Of a stretch of 61,520 bases of DNA, positions 33,191-61,507 are shown piece by piece. The DNA is from an uncultured Alistipes sp. (GTDB lineage: Bacteria > Bacteroidota > Bacteroidia > Bacteroidales > Rikenellaceae). Each line of letters starts with the position of its first letter. Position 1 is the stretch's first letter. A program made the translations under genes and the position numbers. The notes beneath the pieces were generated by a model. That model saw only the letters and a list, made by a program, of their open reading frames with translations. It did no database searches and was not told the DNA's origin. The stretch lies in NCBI GenBank assembly GCA_900546005.1, contig URBJ01000001.1, forward strand, positions 1 through 61,520, in the 5' to 3' direction.

Positions 33191-35260
33191 ATGACATCAC
33201 CAAGAATCAAATATCCATTCAGCCGCCGGTGCGAAACGACCGACAACTATTTCGGAACCGAAGTCGCCGATCCTTACCGCTGGCTTGAAGAGAGTCGTTC
33301 CGACGAAACCCAACAATGGATCGCGGCCCAAAACAAATTGAGCAAAAACTACCTCTCTGCCATTCCATATCGTCCGGCGATCCGCCAACGACTGACCGAG
33401 TTGTGGCACTCACCTCAGTTCGGCATCCCCGAACGGCACGGAGACCGGCTCTTCTTTTTCCATAACGACGGCGGGCACAACCAAAGTATTCTATACTGCC
33501 AGCCCGACGGTGAAGAGGCCCGGATCTTTCTCGATCCGAACACCCTCTCTCCGGATGGAACGGCTGCTCTCACCGGCATCTCCTTCTCCAAAAACGGAAA
33601 GTATATGGCCTACTCACTCGCCGTTTCCGGTTCGGACTGGTCCGAAATACGGATCATGGAGTGTGCCACGGGACGCCTGCTTGCCGACCGCATCCACTGG
33701 GTAAAGTTCTCGTGTGCCGTATGGTGCGGCGAGGGTTTTTATTACAGCGGATTCGATGCTCCGGACACGGGAAAAGAGTATGAAGCGCAATCGCTCGCTC
33801 AGAAGATATTCTACCACCGATTAGGATCGGAACAGAGCGACGACCAGACCGTCTATCACGACCCGGAACACCCGCAACGCTACTTTCAGGCATCGGTCAG
33901 TCACGACGAACAGCATCTTTTTGTCATTGCATCAGAAGGGACTTCGGGCAGTGAGGTTCTCTACCGACGCATTGAAGATGAGACGAAATTTCAGCTGCTC
34001 TTTTCAGGATTCGACTACGACTATACGTTTGTATGTGCCAATCGGGGCGAAGCCCTCTTCCTGACCAACGCACAAGCTCCGAACGGGAAAGTCGTCCGGG
34101 CGATTTTACAGGATAAACCGCAGATTGAACCGTGGCTACCCGAATCGGACAACCGGTTGATTCAGGTGACTTCGGCCGGAGGAGCCTATTTTGTCCACTA
34201 CCTCAAGGACGCCTGCAGCGAAATCATCCGCCTCGACAACGATGGAAATCCTACCAGCCGAGTCGACCTTCCGGGAAACGGTACCGTTTCGGGGTTCGAC
34301 AACGACGGCAACGACGATATTTTTTACTCCTACACCTCCTTCATCGATCCGGTTTCGATCTACCGTTACGATCTCCGAAACGGAAAATCTTCGCTGTACC
34401 GCTCTCCGGAAAAACAGTTCGATCCGGCCTCTTTTGTAGTCGAACGGCACCGGACCCAAAGCAAAGACGGAACTTCGATTCCGTTTTTCGTTGTCCGGCA
34501 TCGGAACAGCCGCCCCGACGGAGATCGCCCGACCTACCTCTACGGATACGGCGGATTCGACATCAGCCTGACCCCTACCTTCTCCCCCTTGGCCATCGCA
34601 TGGATGGAACAGGGTGGCCTATATGTGGTCGCCAATCTGCGGGGCGGAGGGGAGTTCGGAGAGCAGTGGCACCGGGCCGGAATGAAAGCCCGGAAACAGA
34701 ACGTTTTCGATGACTTTATCGCCGTTGCCCAACAGCTGATCGACAGCGGATACACCTCGCCCCGAAAACTGGCCATAGCGGGCGGATCGAACGGAGGCCT
34801 GCTGGTCGGAGCCTGCATGACCCAGCGTCCCGACCTCTTCGCCGTCGCTCTCCCTGCCGTAGGCGTTATGGATATGCTGCGCTACCAATACTTTACCGTC
34901 GGCTGGGGATGGTGCGTCGAATACGGCAACAGCGAACTTCCCGAAGAGTTCGCATGGCTGTATGCCTATTCTCCGCTGCACAACATCCGTCCCGGTGGCG
35001 ACTATCCGGCCACACTGATTACGACCGCCGATCACGACGACCGCGTCGTACCGGCCCACTCCTTCAAGTTTGCCGCTACGCTTCAGACCGCACAAAAAGG
35101 AGACCGTCCGATCCTGATCCGAATCGACTCCGCTGCCGGACACGGCATGGGAAAACCTCTCTCGAAAAAGATCGAGGAGCAGACCGATCAACTTGCGTTC
35201 CTGTTCGCGAACACCGCAACACCCTACCATCCGATCCATGACGACCCCTCGACTGTCTAA
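33191..35260 (+). CDS. Prolyl oligopeptidase family (S9A) serine peptidase
   Basis: 689 residues, full length. The N-terminal seven-bladed propeller starts with YFGTEVADPYRWLEESRSDETQQWIAAQN. The C-terminal alpha/beta-hydrolase holds the nucleophile in IAGGSNGGLLVGA, the Asp in DHDDRVVPAHS and the His in SAAGHGMGKP. There is no signal peptide, so it is probably cytosolic, cleaving short peptides after proline. Oligopeptidase B preference is less likely because the proline-pocket segment GWGWCVEYGNSE is present. Single gene, converging on the epimerase gene with only 5 bp between their stops. Confidence 0.92.
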   Translation: MTSPRIKYPFSRRCETTDNYFGTEVADPYRWLEESRSDETQQWIAAQNKLSKNYLSAIPYRPAIRQRLTELWHSPQFGIPERHGDRLFFFHNDGGHNQSILYCQPDGEEARIFLDPNTLSPDGTAALTGISFSKNGKYMAYSLAVSGSDWSEIRIMECATGRLLADRIHWVKFSCAVWCGEGFYYSGFDAPDTGKEYEAQSLAQKIFYHRLGSEQSDDQTVYHDPEHPQRYFQASVSHDEQHLFVIASEGTSGSEVLYRRIEDETKFQLLFSGFDYDYTFVCANRGEALFLTNAQAPNGKVVRAILQDKPQIEPWLPESDNRLIQVTSAGGAYFVHYLKDACSEIIRLDNDGNPTSRVDLPGNGTVSGFDNDGNDDIFYSYTSFIDPVSIYRYDLRNGKSSLYRSPEKQFDPASFVVERHRTQSKDGTSIPFFVVRHRNSRPDGDRPTYLYGYGGFDISLTPTFSPLAIAWMEQGGLYVVANLRGGGEFGEQWHRAGMKARKQNVFDDFIAVAQQLIDSGYTSPRKLAIAGGSNGGLLVGACMTQRPDLFAVALPAVGVMDMLRYQYFTVGWGWCVEYGNSELPEEFAWLYAYSPLHNIRPGGDYPATLITTADHDDRVVPAHSFKFAATLQTAQKGDRPILIRIDSAAGHGMGKPLSKKIEEQTDQLAFLFANTATPYHPIHDDPSTV

Positions 35261-40024: not shown

Positions 40025-42874
40025 TTACAACGGAAGCGACAGACTGACTCCGGTAACCACGCCGGTCCGGTCACTGGGCTTATAGACATAAACTCCGACC
40101 GAAGCCGTATTGACCGGCAGGCGCAACGGCTGTACATCGAAAATGAGCTCACCACCGTAGGAAGTTACCGTCTGCGTCGACCTCAAGTGCGATCCTCCCA
40201 CCGGGGATTCGATTCGGGCAAAGTCGTAGTAACCGTTCAACCGGATCCGCCGGAAATAAAGGATGCCGTTGATCCCTCCGTCGGGACACCACACGGGAAA
40301 CTGATAATCGACCGAAAGGGCTCCGAGCCGATTTGCCGAAACATTGTAACGTGCTCCACGCGGAAAGAGTTCTTTGTAATAAAAGCCATAGGTGGCGGTC
40401 TTCTGATGCTGCAGGTTACCCCGCAACGTCAACGAGTGGTGCATCATCACACCGGGCAGATATACCCTCCCGAACAGCGAATAGATCCGACTGAACTTCG
40501 ACGAAAAGGGAGCACACACCATCGAGGCCCGCAACAGGTATCCCCACCGGGGCAACAGATCGCGCGTAGCCATCCGTACATTCTCGGAATAGGTCAGATT
40601 GACCACCATCCGCTGGTATCCGGTCGTTAGCGAAGAGTCCTCAACGAGCTGTGCATTCGTATGCCGCAGTTCGACGGCCGGTGCCAACGTACGCGTCAAA
40701 TGTCCGGAAGAGAGGGTCATCGGCAGATAGGCCATGATTCCCAGATCGAGATACTCTTTCCGGGCAAAATAGCTTCGATCCTCTGGAAATGTACCGTAGA
40801 CCTGTTGCTTTCCACCGCCATAGAGAAAAGAGAATTCGAATTTCGGGGCCCATCCGTAGTAGTTCAGCGCACCGCGCAGCAGACTTCCGTTACCGGGCGA
40901 ATACCCGTAGGCCAAATATCCGAACGTATTGGCCAACAGGTTTTGCGACATGACCGTAGCCCCGAATCCCACATCGATCCGACTCTCACCGGCGATGTTG
41001 AACGGATTGAAGTTCCACGGAGCCCAACTGTGCAGGTTGAACAGATGGGTTCCCTTTCTATATCGCTTCACGCGCACTCCGTCACGAAAAAGCGAATCGC
41101 CCCTGACCGTATCGATATTGATTACGTTCCATTTTCGCCGAGGTGGATTCACCCGGTTTTCGGGTATTTTCCGATACCCGACAGGCACCAGAGAATCCGC
41201 AACAATCGGCTGCCGGGCCAAACGATAACCCTCCAACGAATAGGTCGTGAACAGAAGCGTATCATCGGGCGCAGGGTCTGACGGCGCAACCGAACCGTAT
41301 CGCGACCGACTCAGCCGAAATTCGCGATGTTGCTCCAGATCATAGAGATGAATCTCGTCTTTCCCCGAAGCGATCGAGTTAAAGGAGAGTTTGCCGGCTC
41401 CTCCGCGCAAGTTATATATGCTGACATACGAGGGTTCCGTAAGAGCGGTCATCGATCCGGTTTCGGGGTCGATCCGGCGGATGGCCATGCCCGCATCGCT
41501 TAACGTAATAACGGCCAACGTCCGGGTACGATCGTCGTAAGCCAATCCATGCACCGAAACCGTATCGGGCAGATTGAATTGCCGTCCGTCACTGAACTCC
41601 AACCGGTAGATCCCCCGATAATCGTACCCGATCGCCGCCAGCGTACCGTCATCCAACGGCTGCGGAAAGAGCGCATTGTCGAAATGCCGCAACGTCCGAC
41701 GCTTTCCACTCCTCAAGTCATAAGAGCATATCTTCGAAGAGATCCGCTGGCTCCAAAACGTACTGCTGCGGTACTCGCTCCAGTAGAGTACACTGTCGCG
41801 CAAGACCGGAGCCGTATTTACACTTCCCGTATAAAAGAGCCTGCGCTCCTTTCCGGATCGGGAATCCACGACCACCACCCGACTGGTACGGTCCATATCG
41901 CGCTTGAGCGCAAGCAGCGTCGTATCGTTCAGCTTCATCGGAGCCGAATAGACCGTATAGCTGGTAATCGGGGTCGGAATGATCGTACTGCTGTTCGGTT
42001 CGACCGGCTGCGCTTTCCAGAAGCGTTCGAGCTCATCGAGCGTTTCACGGGCAATCCGTCCGGAGGTTGTCCCGAAGTATTTACGCAGGGCCCACGGTGT
42101 AGTAAAAATCGTATAGGGGCGTTTGGAGGCGTATTCGGCCACTCGGGACCACATGTCGTCTCCGTACCGCTCACGCGACCATGCAGCCAGCTGATACCCG
42201 AACTGATAGTGATCCGGAATATAATCTTTATAGGAGCCGCAAAACCATTTGTCCAATGCGAATTTGCGTTTCCCTTCGGTCAGATAGGCTCTGTATTCGA
42301 TCGTAAAAGAGGGTTGTAAGGCTCGACCATAGGTAGCCGTCTGCGTTTCGTGCATAACTGCATCGCCCTCCAAAAACCAGATCGGCATCAACACCGAACT
42401 GATCAAACCCGACTGCTGGCCGATCAGGTACCCCAACCACTTCATCGGTCCGCGATAGAGATTGTTGTACTGGACCGCATGGCGGTATTCATGGGCGATC
42501 AACTGTTTGTGCCACGGTTCGGCAAAGGGTGCCGCCGGAGGAATCGCTTCGAGCTCTATCCGCTTCGGCGCCCAGATTACGATTCCGTTCGATACGAAAT
42601 TCTGGGTATGCAACAATACGGGCATACGCATCGGTCCATATTTGAATCCATACGAAACCGACGGCTGCAGTCGCTCCATATAGGAAGCAATCCGGGCTGC
42701 ATTCTTCTGATAATAATCCGGGAAAATAATGGTTCCTTCAGCGGTTTTGGCCTGATTCCACCGAATACTCTGCGGCGAACGGCCCCAATCGTAGTATTGT
42801 CCCGACAGGGTCGAAAATCCCGATCCTATCAGCACGACCATCCACGCACCGATACACCGCAACAGCACCCTCAT
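40025..42874 (-). CDS. HExxH metalloprotease-like, propeller and outer-membrane barrel fusion protein
   Basis: 949 residues from ATG 42874, which has GGAGGA 8 nt upstream and follows the SUI1 gene by 4 bp. A signal peptide (MRVLLRCIGAWMVVLIGSG...) leads into three parts. Residues 40-290 are a gluzincin-like domain with HEYRH (128-132) and a downstream Glu in WFLEGDA (169), as in MA-clan peptidases. Residues 310-640 are repeated beta segments resembling a TolB/PD40 propeller. Residues about 660-949 are long amphipathic strands ending in GVSLSLPL, resembling an outer-membrane barrel. A peptidase domain attached to its own barrel would sit at the outer membrane. No substrate is known, and the family is not one I can name. 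Confidence 0.75.
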   Translation of the reverse strand: MRVLLRCIGAWMVVLIGSGFSTLSGQYYDWGRSPQSIRWNQAKTAEGTIIFPDYYQKNAARIASYMERLQPSVSYGFKYGPMRMPVLLHTQNFVSNGIVIWAPKRIELEAIPPAAPFAEPWHKQLIAHEYRHAVQYNNLYRGPMKWLGYLIGQQSGLISSVLMPIWFLEGDAVMHETQTATYGRALQPSFTIEYRAYLTEGKRKFALDKWFCGSYKDYIPDHYQFGYQLAAWSRERYGDDMWSRVAEYASKRPYTIFTTPWALRKYFGTTSGRIARETLDELERFWKAQPVEPNSSTIIPTPITSYTVYSAPMKLNDTTLLALKRDMDRTSRVVVVDSRSGKERRLFYTGSVNTAPVLRDSVLYWSEYRSSTFWSQRISSKICSYDLRSGKRRTLRHFDNALFPQPLDDGTLAAIGYDYRGIYRLEFSDGRQFNLPDTVSVHGLAYDDRTRTLAVITLSDAGMAIRRIDPETGSMTALTEPSYVSIYNLRGGAGKLSFNSIASGKDEIHLYDLEQHREFRLSRSRYGSVAPSDPAPDDTLLFTTYSLEGYRLARQPIVADSLVPVGYRKIPENRVNPPRRKWNVINIDTVRGDSLFRDGVRVKRYRKGTHLFNLHSWAPWNFNPFNIAGESRIDVGFGATVMSQNLLANTFGYLAYGYSPGNGSLLRGALNYYGWAPKFEFSFLYGGGKQQVYGTFPEDRSYFARKEYLDLGIMAYLPMTLSSGHLTRTLAPAVELRHTNAQLVEDSSLTTGYQRMVVNLTYSENVRMATRDLLPRWGYLLRASMVCAPFSSKFSRIYSLFGRVYLPGVMMHHSLTLRGNLQHQKTATYGFYYKELFPRGARYNVSANRLGALSVDYQFPVWCPDGGINGILYFRRIRLNGYYDFARIESPVGGSHLRSTQTVTSYGGELIFDVQPLRLPVNTASVGVYVYKPSDRTGVVTGVSLSLPL

Positions 42875-42878
42875 CGAT

Positions 42879-43229
42879 CTATCCTCCCGCCTTCTTGGCT
42901 TGATAACCGGCACGGGTCAAAACCTCGACCACCCGATCACGGAAATCTCCCTGTATCAGGATCTCTCCATCCTTCGCCGTACCCCCTACTCCACACTTAC
43001 TCTTGAGCATCCGTCCCAACTCCTTCAAATCCTCTTCCGTCCCGACAAACCCCTTAACGAGCGTAACCTGTTTTCCGGCCCGCTGTTTCCGGTCGAGCCA
43101 CACTTTCAGACGCTGCTGCGCCGGAGGCAAAGTCTCCTGCACCGGCTCATCCTCTTCATACTGATACTGAAAATCGGGATTCGTCGAATAGACGACATGC
43201 AGGCGGCTCTTCCAATCGTTATCAGACAT
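42879..43229 (-). CDS. yciH: SUI1/eIF1-family translation factor (YciH-like)
   Basis: 116 residues. The C-terminal SUI1 domain reads [54 protein letters not shown], with the conserved K-C-G-x-G-G-T-x-K loop. The N-terminal 35 residues are acidic and variable. Bacterial YciH proteins bind the small ribosomal subunit and affect start-codon fidelity, mostly under stress. It lies 19 bp behind ssb and 4 bp before the metalloprotease-barrel gene, so all three are probably one transcript. Confidence 0.9.
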
Positions 43230-45821: not shown

Positions 45822-47612
45822 TTATTTCATCTCGACCCGATAGGGAGTAAGCGCCTGAATGCTGTTCGAATAGAGAATATTGCGCAACATGTCGTACATT
45901 TCATACACCTCACCGGTCTCCCCCCGAAACATCTGTGCCCGGGCTTCGGCCGAGAGAAGTTTTACGATTTGCGTCAACCGGCTCTCATCCGTCGCCGGAG
46001 AGACGATACGAAAGTCCTCGGACACTCCAGCCCGTTCGGCGGCAACACTGATCGCCTCCTTCAATCCCCCGAAACCGTCGATCAAACCGATATTCAATGC
46101 ATCGGTTCCGGACCAGATGTGTCCTCCACCAATGCTATCCACCGCTTCGACACTCAAATTACGCCCTTCGGCCACATGTCCGACAAAAGTTTTGTACACC
46201 TGTTCTACACCATACTGCATGTATTCGCGTTCGGATTGAGACAGCGGACGAACCCCGACCGCACCGAATACCGTCATGCCCATATCGGCCGACGGATTGG
46301 TCTTGACCACATCGACCGAAATTCCCAACTTGTTCTTGAGTCCCTGTTCTCCGTTCAACATCAGCCCGAAAACTCCGATCGAACCGGTCTCGGTCATCGG
46401 TGAAGCGAGAATCAAGTCGGCCGGAGCCGAAATGTAATAACCGCCCGATGCAGCCATATTCCCCATCGACACGATCAGCGGTTTCTCCTGCCGCAACGCC
46501 TCCGCCTCGTGCCAAATCACTTCAGAAGCCAGCGCACTTCCACCCGGACTGTTCACCCGGAGTACGACCGCCTTCACCTCATCATCCTCCTTCAACGCAG
46601 CCAACTGCCGTGCCAAGGTCTCTCCACCGACCAATCCCTCACGACTCTTCCCGCCGACAATCTGACCTTCGGCATACACCACCGCAATCTTGTTTTTCGA
46701 TACATTCGACTCCTCCATCAAAATGCGATCGATATAACTTCTCAGGGAGACATAGTTCGGCTCCTCCTGCTCGGTCCACTCACCGAGCATCTGATCCACC
46801 TGCTGTCCGTACATCAACGTATCGACCATCCCCAACTGGCGCGCATACGAAGCGTCCTTGATCTCCAAATTCGTAGCAAAGGATTGAAGAGCAGCAGAGT
46901 CGATTCCTCGTGAATCGGCAATATCTCTTACTACGGTTCCCCACAGCGATCCCAACAACATCTCGATCTGCTGCCGATTTTCGGGGCTCATCTGATCCAT
47001 AATGAAAGGCTCGACCGCCGATTTGAACGATCCGTGTCGAACTGCCTCTACCTGTACTTCAAGTTTATCCAACAACCCCTTGTAAAACAGGGTTCCCGAA
47101 GCCATTCCACGCCACGTGACATCGCCCTGCGGGTTCAACGACACCTGATCGGCCACCGAAGAGAGGTAGTAGGAGCTCTGGGTATAAAAGTCGGAGTGAC
47201 TCACGATGAATTTTCCCGAACGGCGAAATACGGAGAGTGCATTCCGTATCTCCTGCATCGTGGCCAGACCCATTCTGGCATTTGGCGTAATGTTCAGGTA
47301 GATTCCGGCAATACGGTCATCCGTTTCAGCTGCTTCGATCGCCTTCAGGACGTCGATCAGCGCATATCCCCTGATCTGCATGTTCATCAGATCGCTGAAC
47401 CCCGACAAGGAGAGCGGGGTATAGTCGGGATTGTCAAAAACCGGGTCAGAAAAATCGATCCTCAGCACCGATTTTTCTTTCACCTCGGGAACTTTTTCCA
47501 TAAAAACCGTTCCGAAACTGGCGATAACCATCACAAAAAATACGCTTGCCAGTACTCCTGCAACCACCAAGGCCAACAAACAGGCCAAAAAAGTCCTAAT
47601 AAACTGATTCAT
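45822..47612 (-). CDS. sppA: Signal peptide peptidase SppA, 67K type
   Basis: 596 residues from ATG 47612, with GTGGAG just upstream; the frame extends upstream but without coding character. One N-terminal transmembrane helix (about 7-33) anchors two tandem ClpP-like halves. The N-terminal half holds the catalytic Lys in RHGSFKSAVEPF and the C-terminal half the nucleophile Ser in NMAASGGYYISAPAD, with LRVNSPGGS before it. It degrades cleaved signal peptides in the membrane, working from the periplasmic side. It is probably the first gene of an sppA-lpxK-punA unit, though the 106-bp gap weakens this. Confidence 0.93.
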   Translation of the reverse strand: MNQFIRTFLACLLALVVAGVLASVFFVMVIASFGTVFMEKVPEVKEKSVLRIDFSDPVFDNPDYTPLSLSGFSDLMNMQIRGYALIDVLKAIEAAETDDRIAGIYLNITPNARMGLATMQEIRNALSVFRRSGKFIVSHSDFYTQSSYYLSSVADQVSLNPQGDVTWRGMASGTLFYKGLLDKLEVQVEAVRHGSFKSAVEPFIMDQMSPENRQQIEMLLGSLWGTVVRDIADSRGIDSAALQSFATNLEIKDASYARQLGMVDTLMYGQQVDQMLGEWTEQEEPNYVSLRSYIDRILMEESNVSKNKIAVVYAEGQIVGGKSREGLVGGETLARQLAALKEDDEVKAVVLRVNSPGGSALASEVIWHEAEALRQEKPLIVSMGNMAASGGYYISAPADLILASPMTETGSIGVFGLMLNGEQGLKNKLGISVDVVKTNPSADMGMTVFGAVGVRPLSQSEREYMQYGVEQVYKTFVGHVAEGRNLSVEAVDSIGGGHIWSGTDALNIGLIDGFGGLKEAISVAAERAGVSEDFRIVSPATDESRLTQIVKLLSAEARAQMFRGETGEVYEMYDMLRNILYSNSIQALTPYRVEMK

Positions 47613-47728: not shown

Positions 47729-48814
47729 ATGACACAAGAAGAACTGTTCGGCTTACTGCATGAAGTAATCCATCCCGAACGACAAGGTGATATCGTCACC
47801 TTAGGCATGATCGAAAATCCGACGGTCACCCCGGACAAGATTCAATTTTCCCTTGTTTTCAACCGGAACAGGGATCCGTTCGCCGCAGCCCTCAAAAAAC
47901 GTTGCGAGGAGCTGATCGTCGCCCGTCATCCCGAATATGCGGGTAACATACACATCTTTATCAAAGAGAACCCGAATAAAAAGCCAACCGAGCCTCATGA
48001 ACGCACCGTCTTCGGCAGCGATGGCAAAACGGGCCGAATCGTAGCCATCAGTTCCGCGAAAGGGGGTGTCGGTAAAAGTACAGTCACGGCTAATCTGGCT
48101 GTTGCCCTCTCTAAAATGGGGTACCGTGTCGGTCTTCTCGACGCCGACATCTACGGACCCTCACAACCGATGCTGTTTGATATCGAAGGGTATCAGCCCG
48201 ACGGTATAGAGGTCGAGGGACACGAGTGGATCCGCCCGGCAGAGCGTTTCGGCATTCTCATCATGTCGATCGGCTTTTTCATCAACCCGAAAGATGCGCT
48301 GATGTGGCGGGGCCCGATGGCCATCAATGCCCTGCGGCAAATGATCCGGCAAACCCTTTGGGGAGAGCTCGATTTTCTGCTGATCGACATGCCTCCCGGA
48401 ACCGGAGACATACACCTTTCGATCCTTCAGGAGATGTCTCTGAGCGGTGCCATCATTGTCAGTACGCCGCAAAAGATGGCGTTGGCCGATGTGGTACGGG
48501 GAATTTCGATGTTCCGCAACGAAAAAATCGGCATTCCCGTTTTGGGACTTGTTGAAAACATGGCGTGGTTTACACCGGAAGAGCTGCCCGATCACAAATA
48601 CTATCTCTTCGGTAAAGAGGGTACCAAGCGGCTGGCCGAAGAGGAGCATCTGCCGTTACTGGCCCAAATTCCGCTGATACAGAACATACGGGAATCATCC
48701 GATGAGGGCAAACCCGTATCCACGGAAGAGGGTCTGACAAGCGAGTATTATCGGCTTTTGGCAAAACGGACGATCGAAGAGCTCGACAAACAACAGCAAC
48801 ACGGCAAGTCGTAA
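47729..48814 (+). CDS. mrp: Mrp/NBP35-family P-loop ATPase, without the C-terminal CxxC
   Basis: 361 residues. The N-terminal MIP18/DUF59 domain (about 1-80) is followed by a deviant Walker A KGGVGKST (111-118), DADIYGPSQPM and LIDMPPGTGD. This is the ApbC/Mrp iron-sulfur cluster carrier family. The segment after VENMAWF, where family members usually carry a CxxC that bridges the Fe-S cluster between subunits, reads TPEELPDHKYYLFG (282-295); the only cysteine visible is C59. The fold is thus intact but the classic cluster ligands are absent. It lies immediately left of the proposed replication origin and is the last plus-strand gene before it. Confidence 0.88.
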   Translation: MTQEELFGLLHEVIHPERQGDIVTLGMIENPTVTPDKIQFSLVFNRNRDPFAAALKKRCEELIVARHPEYAGNIHIFIKENPNKKPTEPHERTVFGSDGKTGRIVAISSAKGGVGKSTVTANLAVALSKMGYRVGLLDADIYGPSQPMLFDIEGYQPDGIEVEGHEWIRPAERFGILIMSIGFFINPKDALMWRGPMAINALRQMIRQTLWGELDFLLIDMPPGTGDIHLSILQEMSLSGAIIVSTPQKMALADVVRGISMFRNEKIGIPVLGLVENMAWFTPEELPDHKYYLFGKEGTKRLAEEEHLPLLAQIPLIQNIRESSDEGKPVSTEEGLTSEYYRLLAKRTIEELDKQQQHGKS

Positions 48815-49300
48815 GGATTTTTGATAATTTTCGCTTGCTTTTTTTGAAGCGCTTGATTAGCAGGGAGTATAGGGAAGGGAAGAGGTGTTAAAAAAGTGTT
48901 GAAATGTAACGGAATGTCGGTTTATATTCTTTTATCGAAAGGGATAGAAAACATTTGCAAAATCCGGAAGACATAAGGGATATAAAAAAGAGAGAAGAAT
49001 GCAAGAAAAAAATATTCGAAACTTTAGACAGTCAACTACGATGAATAACAGCTGTTTTGTTGACAGAAAACGTTATCGATAATTGCGCTGTATCTTTCCG
49101 AATCGAGTGTGCATAAAGTTTAACCGAACTCGACATCTCACAGAATATCAACCTGAAAAAACTATCAACAACTGTCAAAAAGCTGTCAACAACCGATCAT
49201 AAAAAAAGATCAAATAAGTTACGAACACAATAAACAGTTATTGTTTAGATTCTTTTTTTAGATTGAATTTTAAAATTGAAAAATAAAAACAAACAAAAAA
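48815..49300. other. Proposed chromosomal replication origin (oriC), 486 bp without genes
   Basis: No open frame of coding character, tRNA or RNA fold is seen. Three observations support an origin. The strand composition flips here: 46441-46500 has 26 C and 12 G on the plus strand, 49681-49740 has 21 G and 11 C. The dominant gene direction flips too. The gap carries CTRTCAACA-like 9-mers (49058-49066 reversed, 49162-49170, 49172-49180, 49183-49191), TTATCGATA at 49073, a 7-bp hairpin (49227-49244), and a very AT-rich tract from 49245 to 49300 that could be the unwinding element. Canonical TTATCCACA DnaA boxes are absent, so DnaA binding is inference. The nadA promoter must also lie here. Confidence 0.5.
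49162..49191 (+). repeat. Helically phased CTRTCAACA array, possible DnaA-box variants
   Basis: Three 9-mers in direct orientation begin at 49162 (CTATCAACA), 49172 (CTGTCAAAA) and 49183 (CTGTCAACA), spaced 10 and 11 bp, close to one helical turn. An inverted copy, TGTTGACAG, is at 49058-49066. The 9-mers differ from the DnaA consensus TTATCCACA at two to four positions. Confidence 0.55.
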
Positions 49301-50278
49301 ATGAACGACAAGAATAACTGCATCCCGACCGAGAGCTCCGTTTCGGTAAAAGAGTGGATGGAACGGATCTGTGCATTGAAACGACAGAAAAACGCCATCA
49401 TCTTGGCCCATTACTATACCTTGCCCGAAATCCAGCAGATCGCCGACTTTACCGGGGATAGTCTGGCGCTTTCGGCACAGGCTGCTGAAACGGATGCGGC
49501 GATCCTGCTCTTCGCGGGCGTCCATTTTATGGCCGAGACCGCAAAGATCCTCGCTCCGGAGAAGAAGGTGTTGCTGCCAGAACCCCAAGCCGGGTGTTCG
49601 TTGGCCGACTCCTGTACGGCGGATCGATTTGCCGAATTTTTAAAGCAGTATCCCGACCATACGGTGGTATCCTATGTGAATACGTCGGTTGGGGTGAAGG
49701 CCTTGACGGATATTTGTTGTACATCCGGCAATGCGGTCGAGGTGATCCGTTCGCTGCCCGAAACTCAGAAAATCGTCTTTGCGCCGGATCGTAATCTCGG
49801 CAACTATATTCAGCGGATTACGGGGCGGAAAAATATGGTGATCTGGGACGGAGCCTGTGAGGTGCACGAAAAGTTTTCCGCCGAGAAGATTCTCGAGATG
49901 AAGAGACGCTATCCGCAAGCCAAGGTGTTGGCCCATCCCGAGTGCAAGGAGGAGGTTTTGGCGGTGGCCGATGTGGTGGGCAGTACGGCGGCTCTGTTGA
50001 AGTTCGCTTCGAGCGATCCGTGCGATACCTTCCTCGTGGTGACCGAGGCCGGCATTTTGTTCCAGATGCAGCAGGACAATCCGAACAAACGGTTTATTCC
50101 GGTACCGCCCGTTGGTTCTGAATCGAGTTGTAACGAGTGCGAGTACATGAAGATGGTGACTCTGGAAAAAATTTACCGGACGTTACAGGAGGAGTCGCCT
50201 GAAGTAATACTTGATGAAGAGATCCGGCATAAGGCGGAACGTTCGATCCAGCGCATGTTGGAGATCAAAAGGAGTTAG
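49301..50278 (+). CDS. nadA: Quinolinate synthase A
   Basis: 325 residues. It condenses iminoaspartate with dihydroxyacetone phosphate to quinolinate for NAD synthesis, using a 4Fe-4S cluster. Three pseudo-repeated domains contain AHYYTLPEIQQIADFTGDSLALS, FAGVHFMAETAKIL and PEPQAGCSLADSC. Cluster cysteines are the one in PQAGCSLADSC, another in SYVNTSVGVKALTDICCTSGNA and those in CNECEYMKM. First gene right of the proposed origin. nadB and nadC do not follow, which is unusual because the genes are often grouped. The plus strand becomes G-rich from here. Confidence 0.94.
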   Translation: MNDKNNCIPTESSVSVKEWMERICALKRQKNAIILAHYYTLPEIQQIADFTGDSLALSAQAAETDAAILLFAGVHFMAETAKILAPEKKVLLPEPQAGCSLADSCTADRFAEFLKQYPDHTVVSYVNTSVGVKALTDICCTSGNAVEVIRSLPETQKIVFAPDRNLGNYIQRITGRKNMVIWDGACEVHEKFSAEKILEMKRRYPQAKVLAHPECKEEVLAVADVVGSTAALLKFASSDPCDTFLVVTEAGILFQMQQDNPNKRFIPVPPVGSESSCNECEYMKMVTLEKIYRTLQEESPEVILDEEIRHKAERSIQRMLEIKRS

Positions 50279-55232: not shown

Positions 55233-57959
55233 CTAAAACTCAAGTAAGATGTGAGCCTCTCCATTGAATGGAGACAACGTTACGGTTTCGGTTTCCGGAT
55301 CATAGTCGCCACCCGTTACTTGGTTGGGTAGCATCTCTTCGGGGTGGGGAAGCCGAACCTTTATGCAGGCCGGTTTACGTGCATTGTCGTTGCATTTTAC
55401 CACAGCCTCGATACGCCCTTCCCGAACGTGTGAGACCACTTTCACATCGAACGTTCCGAAATAGCTCTGTACGTTCGTCAGTTCGATGCTCTTGCCGTCT
55501 TCCATCCATCGGCGCGGAATGACACGGAACAGTTGAAGCGTATCCCCCTCCTCCATGTAGAGCATCCAGCGGGTTTCCATCAGGAAGTTGGCCTCCTCGT
55601 GCGTTTTGTGCGGACTCAGCTTGTACAGATGTTCCCAGAACGTGTAAGTTCCCTTGTCCGCATAGGGAGCCATCGTATAGTAATAGGTGCTCAGGAAGGG
55701 CTTTACCATTCCCTTACGGGCCTGAAGCCAGTTATGTCGGCTGTAGTAGGGTTGGCTGAAAGCGGAATTTTCCTGCAGCATCAGTTCGCTGGAATAGTTC
55801 AGCAGGGTTTCGGCCAAGGGTTCGTTCGGATCCACAACTTCGCAAAAGATCAGATACATCGGCCCCAACATGTCCGCAACCGTAAAGGTTCCGTGTGAGC
55901 GAAATGTTTCGTGTTTCTGGTAGAGCAGGCGTGGGCCCGGAGCCTCAGTCCAAGGTGGAAGTGTCGGGGACCATGTGCCGTCTCCCAAAGGCACCACGGG
56001 GGATTTCGCCATCGTGCTGTCTACCGATTCCCGGATGGCCTTTTTCCAATCCTCCGCTTCGGCCTGCAGATTACGGGCCATTTCTTCGGAACCGATAGCC
56101 GCAAACACTTCTGCCATCCGTTTTACTCCCAGATAGCCGTATCCGTTCAGCATGAATTGGTGGAAGTGGTCTTCCGGGTCGGCAACCTTACCGTCGATCA
56201 TGCCGTAACCTTTTCCGCGGAGGCTGTCTTTTTTGCTGCGTTCGCGCCATTGGTGCAGGTAGTCACAGGCCTTTTCCAGCGAGGGTGTGATCTGCTCGAT
56301 CCACTCCCGATCACGAGTATAGCGATAGTACTCTCCGATTGACCATAATACAGCTCCTGTTTCGACCATATAGCCGTTGTAGTTCTCGATCCGACCATCC
56401 TCCTGTTGCGTTTCGATAAAGTAATTCAAGGCTCGTCGGGCGATGTCGTTCCACCCCATCGAAAGGTAGAATTGTATGATCGGGGCACTCTCCGTACCGA
56501 TCGGACTGTAAACTCCTACATTGGCTGCGAGGGTACCGTCGGGTTCCTTGCCGTAGGTAACCATGTCCAGATGGAGCAGGCCGGCGCGGATCATCTCGTC
56601 TATTCTCCGTTCCGGTAGCGAGATACGGGCAGCCTTGTCCAGTTTGTTTTTCCAGTAGGCTTTGCACGTTTGGTAGCGTTCCTGTTCGGACTCCTTGGCG
56701 AGCTTTTCGGCACGTTCCAGCGAAATAGGTTCGTGAGGAATGCAAAACGAAACATCGATCTTTTCCCCCGGTTGCAGCAGGATGGCCATCTCCTCGTTTT
56801 CGATCGGCCTCCCTTCGATTTTCGAGATACAGAAAATCCTGTCTTCGGAGAAGGAGGAGAATCCCTGCTTCGGGTCGTAGCGATACGCCGCTCCCATGTA
56901 CAGATTATTTATCGGTAGGGCAGGACGGGGAGTTTTGATCCATGCGTATCGGGGTACCGAACCCTTGTTTTCGATCGATGTCAGAACATAGAGCACGGTC
57001 TCCTCGTTCGATGGGGGTGTAGAGGCCACGATCTCTTCTAACTGTTTTTTTTGCGTCTCGGTGAAGACGCGGCCTCCCGATCGGCTGTCTGAAATCATGT
57101 AATGGGTCCCCTCGACATGTTCCGCAGTTAACGTCGATTTTTCGAGCGAGACGAAAGAGACGCTGTTGTAGTGTATGTCGTCGTCGATCATGTGTGAGTG
57201 ATAGATGGGAAGTACGCCCTCCTCCAAGTCTCTTTTGATGTTGTCCATTACACCCACGCCACGGCCCAGCGCGTAGCGGTAGTAGATCGGAGCCGAGTTT
57301 GTCTCGGGCAGCACCACGGGCGACGAAGAAAAGATCGGGCGTATGGTTTTGTCTTCAAGCATACCGTCGGGCAGCTCTTCGGTGATTTCGAACAAGCGAA
57401 TATCGCGGCTGAGCCCGAGCCAGATTGGTACGTTGGAGTTTCGGGTACGCTTGGCAGCTATATCGAAAGAGGCTTCCGGTTCGGTTTCGATCCGCTGGAT
57501 TTTAGTCCGGTTTTTTCGGGCGAGAAGGTCGTGTTCAACTTCGGCGTAGGATCGCGTGTCCTCTTTTGTTGTGACAACTACTTTGTAATCCGGGATATAT
57601 ATCGGCGTATCGGCGTTTACATCGCGCAAAAAGAAAGAGAACGAGCCTTGTGGAGCGTTTACGTGGATGAGGGTAGCTTCGGGTCCGTATGCTACGTTTA
57701 CGCTGTCTAATTGACATTCGATCCGACCTCCGGTGGTGTCTCTGAATTTGAAAGAGTTACCTTGGATTCGCATGTTTTTGGTGCCATCGATCGCATGGAT
57801 TGCTCCGTATTCGGCCGATAGGCTTCCGGAGCCCCCTCCTGATGCCCACTCGATCGCGAATGAGGAGATCGGTTGTCCGTTGGTTTGCGGTCGTGCGTGT
57901 CCGGCAAACCATATCGACACGCATGTAATACCTGTAATCAGGGTTTTCAGTTTCAGCAT
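55233..57959 (-). CDS. Secreted six-hairpin (alpha/alpha)6 glycosidase-like protein
   Basis: 908 residues from ATG 57959, which gives a signal peptide (MLKLKTLITGITCVSIWFAGHA); the frame upstream lacks coding character and covers the promoter. Residues 30-420 are a beta-sandwich region (IYIPDYKVVVTTKED, VPIWLGLSRDIRLFEI). Residues about 455-800 are helical pairs typical of six-hairpin glycosidases (AGLLHLDMVTYG, IGTESAPIIQFYLSMGWNDIARRALNYFIETQQEDGRIENYNGYMVETGAVLWSIGEYYRYT). A C-terminal beta-sandwich closes it. Family and catalytic acids cannot be fixed without alignment; rhamnosidase- or debranching-like relatives are possible. It diverges from the corrinoid operon. Confidence 0.7.
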   Translation of the reverse strand: MLKLKTLITGITCVSIWFAGHARPQTNGQPISSFAIEWASGGGSGSLSAEYGAIHAIDGTKNMRIQGNSFKFRDTTGGRIECQLDSVNVAYGPEATLIHVNAPQGSFSFFLRDVNADTPIYIPDYKVVVTTKEDTRSYAEVEHDLLARKNRTKIQRIETEPEASFDIAAKRTRNSNVPIWLGLSRDIRLFEITEELPDGMLEDKTIRPIFSSSPVVLPETNSAPIYYRYALGRGVGVMDNIKRDLEEGVLPIYHSHMIDDDIHYNSVSFVSLEKSTLTAEHVEGTHYMISDSRSGGRVFTETQKKQLEEIVASTPPSNEETVLYVLTSIENKGSVPRYAWIKTPRPALPINNLYMGAAYRYDPKQGFSSFSEDRIFCISKIEGRPIENEEMAILLQPGEKIDVSFCIPHEPISLERAEKLAKESEQERYQTCKAYWKNKLDKAARISLPERRIDEMIRAGLLHLDMVTYGKEPDGTLAANVGVYSPIGTESAPIIQFYLSMGWNDIARRALNYFIETQQEDGRIENYNGYMVETGAVLWSIGEYYRYTRDREWIEQITPSLEKACDYLHQWRERSKKDSLRGKGYGMIDGKVADPEDHFHQFMLNGYGYLGVKRMAEVFAAIGSEEMARNLQAEAEDWKKAIRESVDSTMAKSPVVPLGDGTWSPTLPPWTEAPGPRLLYQKHETFRSHGTFTVADMLGPMYLIFCEVVDPNEPLAETLLNYSSELMLQENSAFSQPYYSRHNWLQARKGMVKPFLSTYYYTMAPYADKGTYTFWEHLYKLSPHKTHEEANFLMETRWMLYMEEGDTLQLFRVIPRRWMEDGKSIELTNVQSYFGTFDVKVVSHVREGRIEAVVKCNDNARKPACIKVRLPHPEEMLPNQVTGGDYDPETETVTLSPFNGEAHILLEF

Positions 57960-57999
57960 AGTTAGATTAAGTTTTAGTTTAGATAGTTTGTGTTTCCTA

Positions 58000-58031
58000 C
58001 AAAAATATCTCTTTATCGGAAGAATACCAAA
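58000..58031 (-). promoter_or_regulatory. Promoter of the glycosidase-like gene
   Basis: On the minus strand TTTG (58031-58028) and TATTTTTG (58007-58000) are 20 bp apart, a full consensus match, 41 bp before the ATG. The 305-bp divergent gap (57960-58264) otherwise holds the corrinoid-operon promoter. I see no cobalamin-riboswitch core in it. Confidence 0.7.
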
Positions 58032-58217
58032 GAGTTTATCGTTCTCTTTCGGAGAAGGTTTTAGGACGGGCATAACATTCGAGAGACTCTCCCAAATCGT
58101 CTTAGAGATTTTGCGGGGAAGAGGGCGACGAGGTATAATAGGTTTTATCGGTGTAATTGCAATAATTATACGTCTATTTGGCAATAATAAGTCGGATTAA
58201 TGTGGCCTGATTCTGCG

Positions 58218-58264: not shown

Positions 58265-58900
58265 ATGACGAACTTGAATGAACTTTACGAAGCGATTCTG
58301 GGAGGAAAACTCGAGCCGGCCCAAGCTGTAACCCGGCAGGCTATTGCCGAAGGAATCGAACCCCAATCCATTATCAACGACTATATGGTAAAGGGAATGG
58401 AGGAGATCGGTGCCCGTTTTGAGGCGGGAAAGGCTTTCGTTCCCAATCTGTTGATGAGCGCCCGGGCGATGAAGGGTTGTCTCGAATTGCTTAAACCCTT
58501 GCTTAAAGGAGACAGCAGTACATCGGCCGGTCGGGTCGTGATCGGAACCGTAAAAGGCGATCTGCACGATATAGGAAAGAATCTCGTAGCCTCGATGCTC
58601 GAGGGATGTGGTTTTGAGGTGATCAATTTAGGGGTCGATGTATCGAGCGATAAATTTATCGATGCGGCCAAGGCCAATCATGCCGATATCATCTGCATGT
58701 CGGCACTGCTGACCACGACGATGAACTACATGAAGGAGGTCATAGCTGCCGTTAAGGCTTCGGGTCTCAGAGATCAAGTGAAGGTAATGGTGGGCGGTGC
58801 TCCGCTCAATAATGATTTTGCGGTGGCCATCGGTGCTGATGGGTACAGCTCCAATGCAAACGATGCTGTTGCTCTGGCTCGCCGTTTGGTAAATGCGTGA
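58265..58900 (+). CDS. Corrinoid (cobamide-binding) protein, MtbC/MttC-like
   Basis: 211 residues. An N-terminal four-helix cap (1-85, FEAGKAFVPNLLMSARAMKGCLELL) is followed by a Rossmann B12-binding domain: GDLHDIGKNLV holds the DxHxxG lower-ligand motif (D99, H101, G104), then MSALLTTTM and VMVGGAPLN. This is the free-standing methyl-carrier of corrinoid methyltransferase systems; the cobalt shuttles between Co(I) and methyl-Co(III). First gene of a three-gene operon, overlapping the reactivase by 8 bases. By family the partners are a substrate:corrinoid and a corrinoid:acceptor methyltransferase; only one UroD-type enzyme is present here. Confidence 0.93.
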   Translation: MTNLNELYEAILGGKLEPAQAVTRQAIAEGIEPQSIINDYMVKGMEEIGARFEAGKAFVPNLLMSARAMKGCLELLKPLLKGDSSTSAGRVVIGTVKGDLHDIGKNLVASMLEGCGFEVINLGVDVSSDKFIDAAKANHADIICMSALLTTTMNYMKEVIAAVKASGLRDQVKVMVGGAPLNNDFAVAIGADGYSSNANDAVALARRLVNA

Positions 58901-59597
58901 CGAAATGGTTACACGGTCCGTTTCATTAGATGAGTTGGAGATCGATTGGGACGGTTTTTGGCAGGAGAGCGGCTTCGGGGGGTATGTTCCCGATGAATCG
59001 GCGCAACGGCTCTATCGAGAAGTGGTCGATGAGGTTCGACGGAGGGTGCATCCGATGTATGGGTATGCCAGTTATCCGAACGAGGGTAGTGATCGGGTGG
59101 CGTTGCGTATGGGAGGAGTCTGTTTTCAGGCGGGAGGGATCATTTCCCGATACCTTTTCGAGGCCGATGAGTTCGTTGTGTTTGTAGCGACGGCGGGTCG
59201 GGAATTCGAATCGTTGCAGCGAGAACTTGGCCGTGAAGGGGATATTGTCAAACAGTTCATGGCCGACATGATCGGGTCGGAGATTGCCGAAGCTACCGGA
59301 AATTTACTCTCTCGAACACTCGAGAAAATACAATCGGACAGAGGGTTAGGCGTCAGCAATCGGTACAGTCCGGGATATTGCGGATGGCCGGTTGCCGAAC
59401 AGCGGAAGCTCTTCACGCTGTTGCCTCCGGCTCCGTGCGGAATTACGTTGACCGATTCATGCCTGATGCTGCCGATCAAATCGATCAGCGGAGTGATGGC
59501 TGTCGGGACGCGTGTGGAGAAGCGACCGTATGGGTGTGCGATTTGTGGCCGGAAAGATTGTTACAAAAACAGATTACGAAAAGCAGAAAAACGATGA
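58893..59597 (+). CDS. Stand-alone MetH-type reactivation domain protein
   Basis: 234 residues; start ATG 58893 overlaps the previous stop by 8 bases, and ATG 58905 is an in-frame alternative. Residues about 85-205 match the SAM-binding activation domain of cobalamin-dependent methionine synthase: RYSPGYCGWPVAEQRKLFTLL (RxSPGY at 157-162) and ITLTDSCLMLPIKSISGVMAVG. The rest of MetH is absent. The last 25 residues add three cysteines, CAICGRKDC (215-223), that could bind a metal or cluster. I infer that it restores oxidised Co(II) corrinoid protein to methyl-Co(III) with SAM and an electron donor, in place of RACE/RamA iron-sulfur activators. Coupled by ATGA overlap to the next gene. Confidence 0.87.
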   Translation: MRDEMVTRSVSLDELEIDWDGFWQESGFGGYVPDESAQRLYREVVDEVRRRVHPMYGYASYPNEGSDRVALRMGGVCFQAGGIISRYLFEADEFVVFVATAGREFESLQRELGREGDIVKQFMADMIGSEIAEATGNLLSRTLEKIQSDRGLGVSNRYSPGYCGWPVAEQRKLFTLLPPAPCGITLTDSCLMLPIKSISGVMAVGTRVEKRPYGCAICGRKDCYKNRLRKAEKR

Positions 59598-60598
59598 ATA
59601 CATTCGATTGGATCCGTGAGATTATCGGGACGAAACGAGTAGCGGCGATTCCGATTATGACCCACCCCGGTATCGAAATCTTGGGGTACCGGGTGTTGGA
59701 TGCGGTGGCGGACGGTGAGGTCCATTTCAAGGCGATTCAAGCGCTTGATGAGCGGTTTCCTCAGTCGTCGGCCAGTACCGTGATTATGGATCTCTCCGTA
59801 GAGGCAGAGGCTTTTGGCGCCATACTTCATTTTGCGGAGAACGAAGTGCCGAGTGTCGTCGGGCGGTTGGTCTCGTCGTATGACGAAGTTATGGCGCTGC
59901 CCGTTCCATCTGTCGATTCAGCTCGCGTGCCCGAGTTTCTGAAAGCGAATCGTCTGGCAGCTGAACATCTTGCCAAACCTGTCTTTGCTGGCTCCATTGG
60001 CCCCTTTTCATTGGCCGGTCGTCTCTTCGACATGACCGAAATCATGATGGCGATCTATACGGAACCCGAAACGGTCGAGGCGTTGCTCGAGAAGTGTACA
60101 GCCTTTCTTCTTGCCTACATACGGGCATTGAAGGAGTGTGGTGTTGCCGGGGTCATTGTGGCGGAACCAGCTGCTGGATTGTTGCCCGACGAGGATTGCC
60201 GCCGTTTTTCCTCCGTCTATATTCGAAAAATTGTCGAAGCCTTGCAGGAGGATACCTTTGCGGTGATTCTGCATAATTGCGGAAATTCAGGGCATTGTAC
60301 GGGGGCTATGGTGGCAACCGGTGCCAAAGGCTATCACTTCGGCAATCGCATCGATATGTTGGATGCCCTGCGCGACTGCCCGGAGGATACGATGGTTATG
60401 GGGAACTTGGATCCGGTCGGACTTTTTAAGAATGCGGCAGCCGAGGATGTCGAGCAGGTTACCCGTAACTTGTTGGAGCGTACGGCATCCTATCCGAATT
60501 TTGTTATCTCTACCGGGTGCGATACTCCCCCAGAGGTCCCGATGGCCAATATCGAGGCTTTTTATCGTGCGGTGGAAGCCTTCAATACTTCCCGATAG
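59594..60598 (+). CDS. Uroporphyrinogen-decarboxylase/MtaA-family cobamide methyltransferase
   Basis: 334 residues from ATG 59594, overlapping the reactivase stop (ATGA); the frame extends further upstream but only within that gene. UroD-like TIM barrel with the zinc ligands of the MtaA/CmuA/MtbA branch: H227-x-C229 in ILHNCGNSGH and C309 in ISTGCDTPPE. GNLDP (270-274) is also typical. The invariant arginines of haem-pathway UroD are missing, so it is not HemE. Zinc would activate a thiol, or bind the substrate in demethylases of this family. Without a MtaB/MttB-type partner here it could be either the methyl donor-side or acceptor-side enzyme. Convergent with the AraC gene, 21 bp apart. Confidence 0.88.
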   Translation: MNTFDWIREIIGTKRVAAIPIMTHPGIEILGYRVLDAVADGEVHFKAIQALDERFPQSSASTVIMDLSVEAEAFGAILHFAENEVPSVVGRLVSSYDEVMALPVPSVDSARVPEFLKANRLAAEHLAKPVFAGSIGPFSLAGRLFDMTEIMMAIYTEPETVEALLEKCTAFLLAYIRALKECGVAGVIVAEPAAGLLPDEDCRRFSSVYIRKIVEALQEDTFAVILHNCGNSGHCTGAMVATGAKGYHFGNRIDMLDALRDCPEDTMVMGNLDPVGLFKNAAAEDVEQVTRNLLERTASYPNFVISTGCDTPPEVPMANIEAFYRAVEAFNTSR

Positions 60599-60619: not shown

Positions 60620-61507
60620 TTACAGTCTGAAGTCCTGTTTGCGGAATTCGGAGGGTGAGATGCCGACGAGGTGTTTAAAGGTGCGGGAAAAGTGGTCTGC
60701 ACTGCCGAATCCGAGTTTTGCGGCGATCTGGGAGACTGTCATTGATGTCTTGAGCAGGTATACGGTGGCTTTGTTGATCTTGAGGTGGTTGAAATATTCG
60801 ATCGGTGCCATCGATGTCTGTCGGATGAATTGGCGGTACAGGTACGAGGGGTTGTAACCGGCGTAGCGGGAGATTTCGTCGATGGTGAGTTTTCGGTCGA
60901 TGTGTTCGTTCATGAAGTGCGTAACCCGGTTGACGATTCCCTCGATGTGACGGGGCTGTTCGCTTATCGTTTCAAACAGCGTGAGGAACCGAAACGAGGC
61001 GATCAGATGGGCGAATGCGAGATTTGCGTAGTTCAGACGATCGAGAGTCAAGGTGCCGCAGAGGACACCGTAAAGGTTTTCGAACAGCTCGATGCGTTGT
61101 TCGATCCGCATGTTAATCGACGGGGGTACCGTGACGGGAGCCTCCATGTTTCGAGCGAAGATTTTTCCCTTCTCGCCGTCGAATTTTATCCAGTAGATGC
61201 TCCATGGATCGTCGTTTTCTGCACCGTAGGACAGGGGGATCTGTTTGGGTAGTACGATGTACTGGTTGGCCTTGATCGGAATCGTCTGTTGTCTGATGCG
61301 GATCGATCCGCTGCCCCAGACGCAGTAAATAAAGAGATAGGCGTCGTTGCCTGACGGTCGTTCGACGAAATGGTGACGGCCATGGGCAATGTACCCTAAT
61401 GAGTGGATGTATAGATCACCTGTCAAAGGGTCGTTTTGTATCAGATCGAGAAATTGTTGGGGGATCACTATGCGGCGTTCTCCCGGAAAACCAGTTTCGA
61501 TACCCAT
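60620..61507 (-). CDS. AraC-family transcriptional regulator
   Basis: 295 residues. The N-terminal cupin sensor domain (about 25-150: RPSGNDAYLFIYCVWGSGSIRI...KANQYIVLPKQIPLSYGAENDDPWSIYWIKFDGE) is the carbohydrate-type AraC ligand domain. The C-terminal double helix-turn-helix is complete (KLTIDEISRYAGYNPSYLYRQFIRQTSMAPIEYFNHLKINKA and TVSQIAAKLGFGSADHFSRTFKHLVGISPSEFRKQ). It ends next to the methyltransferase gene in convergent direction. It is the only regulator near that operon and the glycosidase-like gene, so control of both is a reasonable guess. The start at 61507 lies 13 bp from the window edge, so its promoter is not visible. Confidence 0.9.
   Translation of the reverse strand: MGIETGFPGERRIVIPQQFLDLIQNDPLTGDLYIHSLGYIAHGRHHFVERPSGNDAYLFIYCVWGSGSIRIRQQTIPIKANQYIVLPKQIPLSYGAENDDPWSIYWIKFDGEKGKIFARNMEAPVTVPPSINMRIEQRIELFENLYGVLCGTLTLDRLNYANLAFAHLIASFRFLTLFETISEQPRHIEGIVNRVTHFMNEHIDRKLTIDEISRYAGYNPSYLYRQFIRQTSMAPIEYFNHLKINKATVYLLKTSMTVSQIAAKLGFGSADHFSRTFKHLVGISPSEFRKQDFRL

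What the first reader, a model, noticed from the sequence alone, without database searches (positions are those of the whole stretch)
48815..49300. Candidate chromosomal replication origin in the mrp-nadA gap
Three independent signals change at the same place. Left of the gap 33 of 40 genes are on the minus strand; right of it 7 of 9 are on the plus strand. Hand counts of plus-strand lines show 26 C/12 G at 46441-46500, 17 G/22 C inside a plus-strand gene at 34501-34560, 21 G/11 C at 49681-49740 and 21 G/11 C at 60661-60720 even though that gene is on the minus strand. A C-to-G switch left to right is the pattern of an origin, not a terminus. The gap is the longest non-coding stretch in the window and is AT-rich. 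There is no dnaA next to it.
Basis: partly seen in the sequence, partly recalled or inferred. Interest (0 to 1): 0.8.

Follow-up and report, generated by a model that had tools for sequence, protein, structure and literature searches.

The report
Chromosome replication start site
The gap is very probably the place where this bacterium begins copying its chromosome, marked by a short DNA signal that many relatives keep in the same spot beside the gene nadA and far from the usual neighbour gene dnaA.

Summary
The mrp-nadA gap (48815-49300) is the longest non-coding stretch left once two apparent gaps proved coding; G+C 0.315. GC skew flips there in third codon positions of genes on either strand, so it is replicative. 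The window's own genome is not held, so I used relatives. In two near-complete chromosomes of the family, sampled skew turns from minus to plus at this locus and back near the antipode. All 25 relatives with both genes in reach carry a 45-bp core in the gap: two abutting DnaA-box-like 9-mers, a GC step, then T-rich triplets with A every third base. The window's copy is 49216-49260. A model built without the window finds it as the window's only hit below E=1; in 97 of 107 held-out genomes its best listed hit lies just downstream of mrp. In relative G048 the core sits near ruvB, and the skew turn lies 8.5 kb from it, against 74 kb from mrp and 201 kb from nadA. So it is very probably a chromosomal oriC. 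OriC far from dnaA is already known in Bacteroidetes; the nadA linkage and the degenerate trio tract are the newer parts. Function is untested.

The parts
48815..49300 (.). candidate oriC: AT-rich non-coding gap with a cluster of DnaA-box-like sites
   Evidence: Skew flip; 6 sites within one mismatch of TTATCNACA against 0.60 expected; same gap in 25 of 25 relatives that hold both genes in reach
49216..49260 (+). conserved 45-bp core (box pair, GC step, triplet tract)
   Evidence: Only model hit below E=1 in the window, 49216-49259, E 6e-5, 19.3 bits; matrix score 37.1 against 9.1 for the next place. The model was built from 21 relatives without the window
49219..49236 (+). two abutting DnaA-box-like 9-mers, TTACGAACA and CAATAAACA; both weak (3 and 4 mismatches to TTATCCACA)
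   Evidence: columns: ACA of box 1 and AC of box 2 invariant in 26 of 26
49239..49260 (+). T-rich triplet tract beside nadA, proposed unwinding site; degenerate DnaA-trio-like (TAT TGT TTA GAT TCT)
   Evidence: In the 26 aligned cores, at positions outside the string used for anchoring, 35 of 36 A's fall on one 3-base phase; 5000 shuffles reach at most 23. In the window the phase is only partly kept
49073..49082 (.). palindromic DnaA-box-like pair TTATCGATAA
   Evidence: Within one mismatch of TTATCNACA on both strands
49108..49116 (-). DnaA-box-like TTATGCACA
49162..49193 (+). repeat block CTATCAACA ... CTGTCAACA, spaced 21 bp
   Evidence: Direct repeat D1; box list
47729..48814 (+). mrp (iron-sulfur carrier P-loop ATPase, ApbC/NUBPL family), left flank
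   Evidence: Pfam PF10609; NF008669 at 255.8 bits, below its cut-off of 348
49301..50278 (+). nadA (quinolinate synthase), right flank
   Evidence: NF006878, TIGR00550 over cut-off; PF02445

Best explanation
The gap is the chromosomal replication origin (oriC) of a bacterium of the family Rikenellaceae (Bacteroidales). Proposed mechanism: DnaA, encoded about 1.1-1.2 Mb away in relatives, binds the box cluster and the abutting box pair of the core (49219-49236), extends as a filament onto the T-rich triplet tract beside nadA (49239 onward), opens the AT-rich duplex and lets the helicase load; two forks leave in opposite directions and leave the minus/plus skew on either side. Shown here: a flip independent of gene strand, chromosome-wide skew turning at the same locus in relatives, box enrichment, a conserved core that marks the locus in held-out genomes. 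Inferred: DnaA binding, unwinding at the tract, bidirectional firing.
For: Strand-independent flip. Sampled whole-chromosome skew in G016 and G065 turns here and back near the antipode. Fine minima in the window, G016, G071 and G065 all about 1.2 kb from the core. DnaA-box-like sites 163 against 16.9 expected over 26 gaps. Model hit in the window E 6e-5; in ten held-out genomes the best hit is in the mrp-nadA gap in 7 and just before nadA at a contig end in 1. In 116 of 126 genomes with both listed, 97 of 107 held out, the element is 256-931 bp downstream of mrp. In G048 the skew minimum is 8.5 kb from the element, 74 kb from mrp, 201 kb from nadA.
Against: No functional or marker-frequency data and no genome of the window's own species. 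The window's core boxes are weak and its triplet tract breaks the strict DnaA-trio rule. The fine minimum lies in mrp, not in the gap. 35 of 200 family genomes have no model hit at E 0.01, and in 10 of 126 the best hit is not beside mrp. In G035 the local skew does not decide between element and mrp.
Confidence: 0.92

Rival explanations
1. The conserved core is a cis-regulatory element of nadA, and the skew flip has another cause.
For: The core lies within about 150 bp of the aligned start of nadA in 25 of the 26 gaps (220 bp in one), and is beside nadA in 12 of 19 genomes chosen because mrp was not listed beside it.
Against: In G048 and G035 the core is 193 and 304 kb from nadA, near ruvB, and in G048 the skew turn lies near the core, deep inside the minus arm for nadA. 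In 7 of 19 genomes the element is not beside nadA. Rfam finds no RNA family in the window.
Confidence: 0.03
2. The gap is a DnaA-binding cluster (titration or regulation, like datA, name recalled) near to but not at the initiation site.
For: The window's core boxes are weak, and the fine minimum lies 1.2 kb to the mrp side.
Against: The offset is small and inside a gene in all four cases. No other 486-bp stretch of the window has as many box-like sites and no second model hit is below E=1.
Confidence: 0.04
3. The flip is a local inversion, an assembly join or transcription bias.
For: Gene strand also switches at the gap.
Against: Third-position skew flips for genes of both strands; the order is shared by 25 relatives and chromosome-scale skew turns there in two.
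Confidence: 0.01

Closest known systems
Bacterial chromosomal oriC (DnaA-dependent); in Bacteroidetes Prevotella intermedia OMA14 (PMC4755523, passages seen)
   Same: Skew transition, DnaA-box cluster, intergenic, dnaA not nearby. That paper states that oriC is commonly far from dnaA in the phylum.
   Different: Neighbour genes are mrp and nadA; the passages I saw name no neighbours. The core described here is not mentioned in them.
Basal unwinding system (BUS): tandem DnaA-boxes, spacer, DnaA-trios (PMC8287927, passages seen)
   Same: Order of parts: two boxes, a short GC step, then a tract with A on every third base.
   Different: The tract is T-[A/C]-T-like and often lacks three successive central A's; the strict rule as I coded it is met at the core in 5 of 26 gaps and not in the window. 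That paper itself suspects deviant trios without the central adenine.

Membership tests
Chromosomal oriC | Chromosome-wide skew turns from minus to plus at the site | tested here: met
   In two relatives by sampling 20 stretches of 20 kb each; in the window only locally. Own genome not held
Chromosomal oriC | Cluster of DnaA boxes in an AT-rich intergenic region | tested here: met
   6 against 0.60 expected in the window, 163 against 16.9 in 26 gaps; none of the window's sites is an exact TTATCNACA
Chromosomal oriC | Conserved position and sequence in relatives | tested here: met
   25 of 25 with both genes in reach (18 of 44 loci lacked one gene in the fetched stretch); 116 of 126 in the family scan
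Chromosomal oriC | Replication starts here; coverage peak; DnaA binds | not testable with these tools
   No reads, no assay
BUS (DnaA-trio system) | Tandem DnaA boxes, one with at most 2 mismatches to TTATCCACA and the other at most 4 | tested here: not met
   Window core boxes have 3 and 4 mismatches
BUS (DnaA-trio system) | At least three successive NAN trios within 16 bp of a box | tested here: not met
   Not met at the window core; box and trio rules together met at the core in 5 of 26 gaps. One match of the box-and-trio rule elsewhere in the gap, minus strand, box at 49074
BUS (DnaA-trio system) | DnaA-dependent strand opening at the trios | not testable with these tools
   Needs purified DnaA

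The most novel reading that the evidence does not exclude
Bacteroidota origins share a core (abutting DnaA-box pair, GC step, degenerate T-[A/C]-T trio tract) that has stayed linked to nadA since before the split of its orders, as dnaA or gidA mark origins elsewhere, with occasional jumps (for example to ruvB); the tract would be a deviant DnaA-trio of the kind that published searches could miss.
Probability: 0.4. Interest if true: 0.62.

Novelty: new member of a known kind. Interest (0 to 1): 0.45.

Why it matters
Records of this phylum may start at dnaA (G016 does; Lutibacter profundi was rotated to it, PMC5219744, passage seen), yet in four relatives dnaA is about 1.1-1.2 Mb from the element. 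A short sequence that finds the origin in one scan would allow correct rotation and better growth-rate estimates from coverage. The degenerate triplet tract gives a concrete test of how far the DnaA-trio rule can bend.

Tried and rejected
Rejected: nadA regulator, titration cluster, inversion or assembly join (see rivals); origin at dnaA (in G016 dnaA lies at base 34, in a plus stretch that is not at a minus-to-plus turn).

Led nowhere or weak: Rfam 0 families; tRNAs 0. The order-level model scan is noisy: 154 of 198 genomes match at E up to 0.1, so I trusted only hits beside nadA. Of its 30 fetched loci 2 had mrp and nadA and, of the other 28, 5 had nadA alone. In the 80 nadA loci the matrix scores high upstream of nadA in 6, all of them training sequences, and 22.7 and 19.7 in two others (L029, L065); the rest score 10.4 or less, many below their own background. 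Box-plus-triplet runs seen by eye in other loci have no control. Skew around nadA in Chitinophaga sp. E66, G403 and G405 changes as expected but weakly; G336 is inconclusive. The first stretch of the fine G016 scan (1640-1660 kb) is mixed, -0.009. Paper searches with nadA or quinolinate synthase and origin terms and on origins in the phylum or related terms listed no paper that I saw to name nadA as an origin neighbour; the library holds open-licence papers only and I read passages of six.

Full report
What was checked. Gene strand does not explain it: third-position skew on the + strand is negative for genes of both strands on the left (-0.24, -0.17) and positive for both on the right (+0.13, +0.20). 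The gap 48815-49300 is 486 bp, G+C 0.315. A longer gap left by my gene caller holds a DUF386 gene, and a 477-bp one lies in an ORF with a Met_synt_B12 match. mrp and nadA are named by family matches. DnaA proteins of four relatives find nothing but short hits at E 0.15 or worse in the window.

Whose genome. None is held for the window. The nearest nadA loci in the GTDB contigs are from Alistipes and Rikenellaceae records, up to 65% identical. A scan of 200 genomes in the family of Alistipes sp. Zagget8 gave closer kin: Mrp 93% and 92% identical in G036 and G071, 72% in G016.

Chromosome scale. Contigs of 3,019,767 bp (G016) and 2,780,015 bp (G065), about the size of their genomes, were sampled with 20 stretches of 20 kb each. 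G016: 11 of 11 stretches from 302 kb to 1812 kb negative, 9 of 9 others positive; mrp at 1837 kb. G065: 9 of 9 from 417 kb to 1529 kb negative, 10 of 11 others positive; mrp at 1668 kb. The opposite change falls near the antipode (about 327 kb and 279 kb) in both. Finer scans put the cumulative minimum inside mrp, about 1.2 kb from the core, in the window (48013), G016 (1838149), G071 (225571) and G065 (1668202). dnaA lies at base 34 in G016, 599 kb in G065, 87 kb in G057 and 773 kb in G048; with the elements, and taking the contigs as closed circles, that is 1.1-1.2 Mb away. That oriC is commonly far from dnaA in Bacteroidetes is in print (PMC4755523, passages seen).

The element. Of 44 loci examined, 26 held mrp and nadA in reach, all in the same order and strand; one repeats another, leaving 25 relatives. 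In each gap I took the best match to a 27-letter consensus that I had drawn by eye from the gaps, so the anchoring is not blind. Scores are 19-25 of 27 in the 26 gaps with the window (21), while 252 strand-tiles of 486 bp across the window have median 14, then 16, 17 and 21 as the highest, the window's own core included. The shared core is TTATC[AG]ACA, an abutting NTATCAACA, GC, then a T-rich tract. Over all tract positions 75 of 82 A's are in one phase, part of which the anchor imposes; beyond the anchor 35 of 36 are, and 5000 shuffles reach at most 23. Sites within one mismatch of TTATCNACA: 163 against 16.9 expected in 26 gaps, 6 against 0.60 in the window.

Held-out tests. A sequence-only model was built from 21 cores without the window, G071, G016, G065 and G057; held-out genomes may still be near kin of training ones. 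In the window it gives 49216-49259 at E 6e-5, next E 7.9. The matching matrix scores 37.1 there, 9.1 next; in 640 kb of G016 stretches 48.0 at the gap and 19.8 next. In ten held-out genomes the best hit is in the mrp-nadA gap in 7, before nadA at a contig end in 1 (G036), and near ruvB in 2 (G048 E 0.022, G035 E 0.0045); RuvB and DUF4271 were named by Pfam for the G035 locus, and the G048 locus has like ORFs by inspection. In the family scan 165 of 200 have a hit at E up to 0.01. Crossing the listed rows only (151 mrp, 150 element), 126 genomes have both: 116 have the element 256-931 bp downstream of mrp on the same strand, 7 on another contig, 3 elsewhere on the contig; of the 107 not used in training 97, 7 and 3.

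Origin or nadA regulator. In G048 nadA is at 1648 kb, mrp at 1775 kb, the element at 1841 kb. Skew is negative at 500, 900 and 1300 kb and in each 20-kb stretch from 1760 to 1840 kb, with the cumulative minimum at 1849 kb and plus skew beyond and at 2200, 2600 and 100 kb. The turn is nearest the element, though 8.5 kb off it. In G035 local skew does not decide between element and mrp, but nadA, 304 kb away, is excluded. I then took 20 genomes where mrp was not listed beside the element (all 10 of one kind, and 10 of the 24 with mrp unlisted): 19 have nadA, in 12 it is beside the element and in 7 not.

Mechanism. The layout is that of the basal unwinding system: two boxes, spacer, DnaA-trios (PMC8287927, passages seen). 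I propose that DnaA docks on the abutting boxes and runs onto the tract towards nadA. By the published rule, as I coded it from those passages, the strict pattern is met at 5 of 26 cores and not at the window's, whose boxes have 3 and 4 mismatches and whose tract reads TAT TGT TTA GAT TCT. So it is laid out like that system but not filed as a member. The paper itself suspects deviant trios without the central adenine.

Wider view. At order level 5 of 28 fetched non-family-type loci have the element beside nadA without mrp, and by eye box-plus-triplet runs precede nadA in several other Bacteroidota loci (no control). Skew in Chitinophaga sp. E66 and two large contigs turns near nadA, weakly; one contig is inconclusive. 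A phylum-wide nadA link is possible, not shown.

Noticed in passing
G016:C1 (L113, L175): This near-complete record starts at dnaA, although the skew-defined origin is at about 1.84 Mb, so the record start misleads about the origin.
   Followed up: yes
L190 and L191 (G035:C2 about 1183835, G048:C1 about 1840940): The origin-like core sits between a DUF4271 gene and ruvB instead of mrp and nadA, which suggests that the origin or its neighbours moved in this lineage.
   Followed up: partly
window 58265-60598 (+): A B12-binding corrinoid protein, a protein with a match to the B12-dependent methionine synthase activation domain, and a URO-D family protein lie in a row, like a corrinoid methyl-transfer cassette.
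   Followed up: no
window 55233-58184 (-) and 40025-42913 (-): Two large proteins without family matches: 983 aa with no Pfam match and 962 aa with no NCBIfam match.
   Followed up: no
G036:C9 and G036:C23: In the closest relative the assembly breaks inside this gap, mrp ending one contig and the core plus nadA starting another.
   Followed up: no
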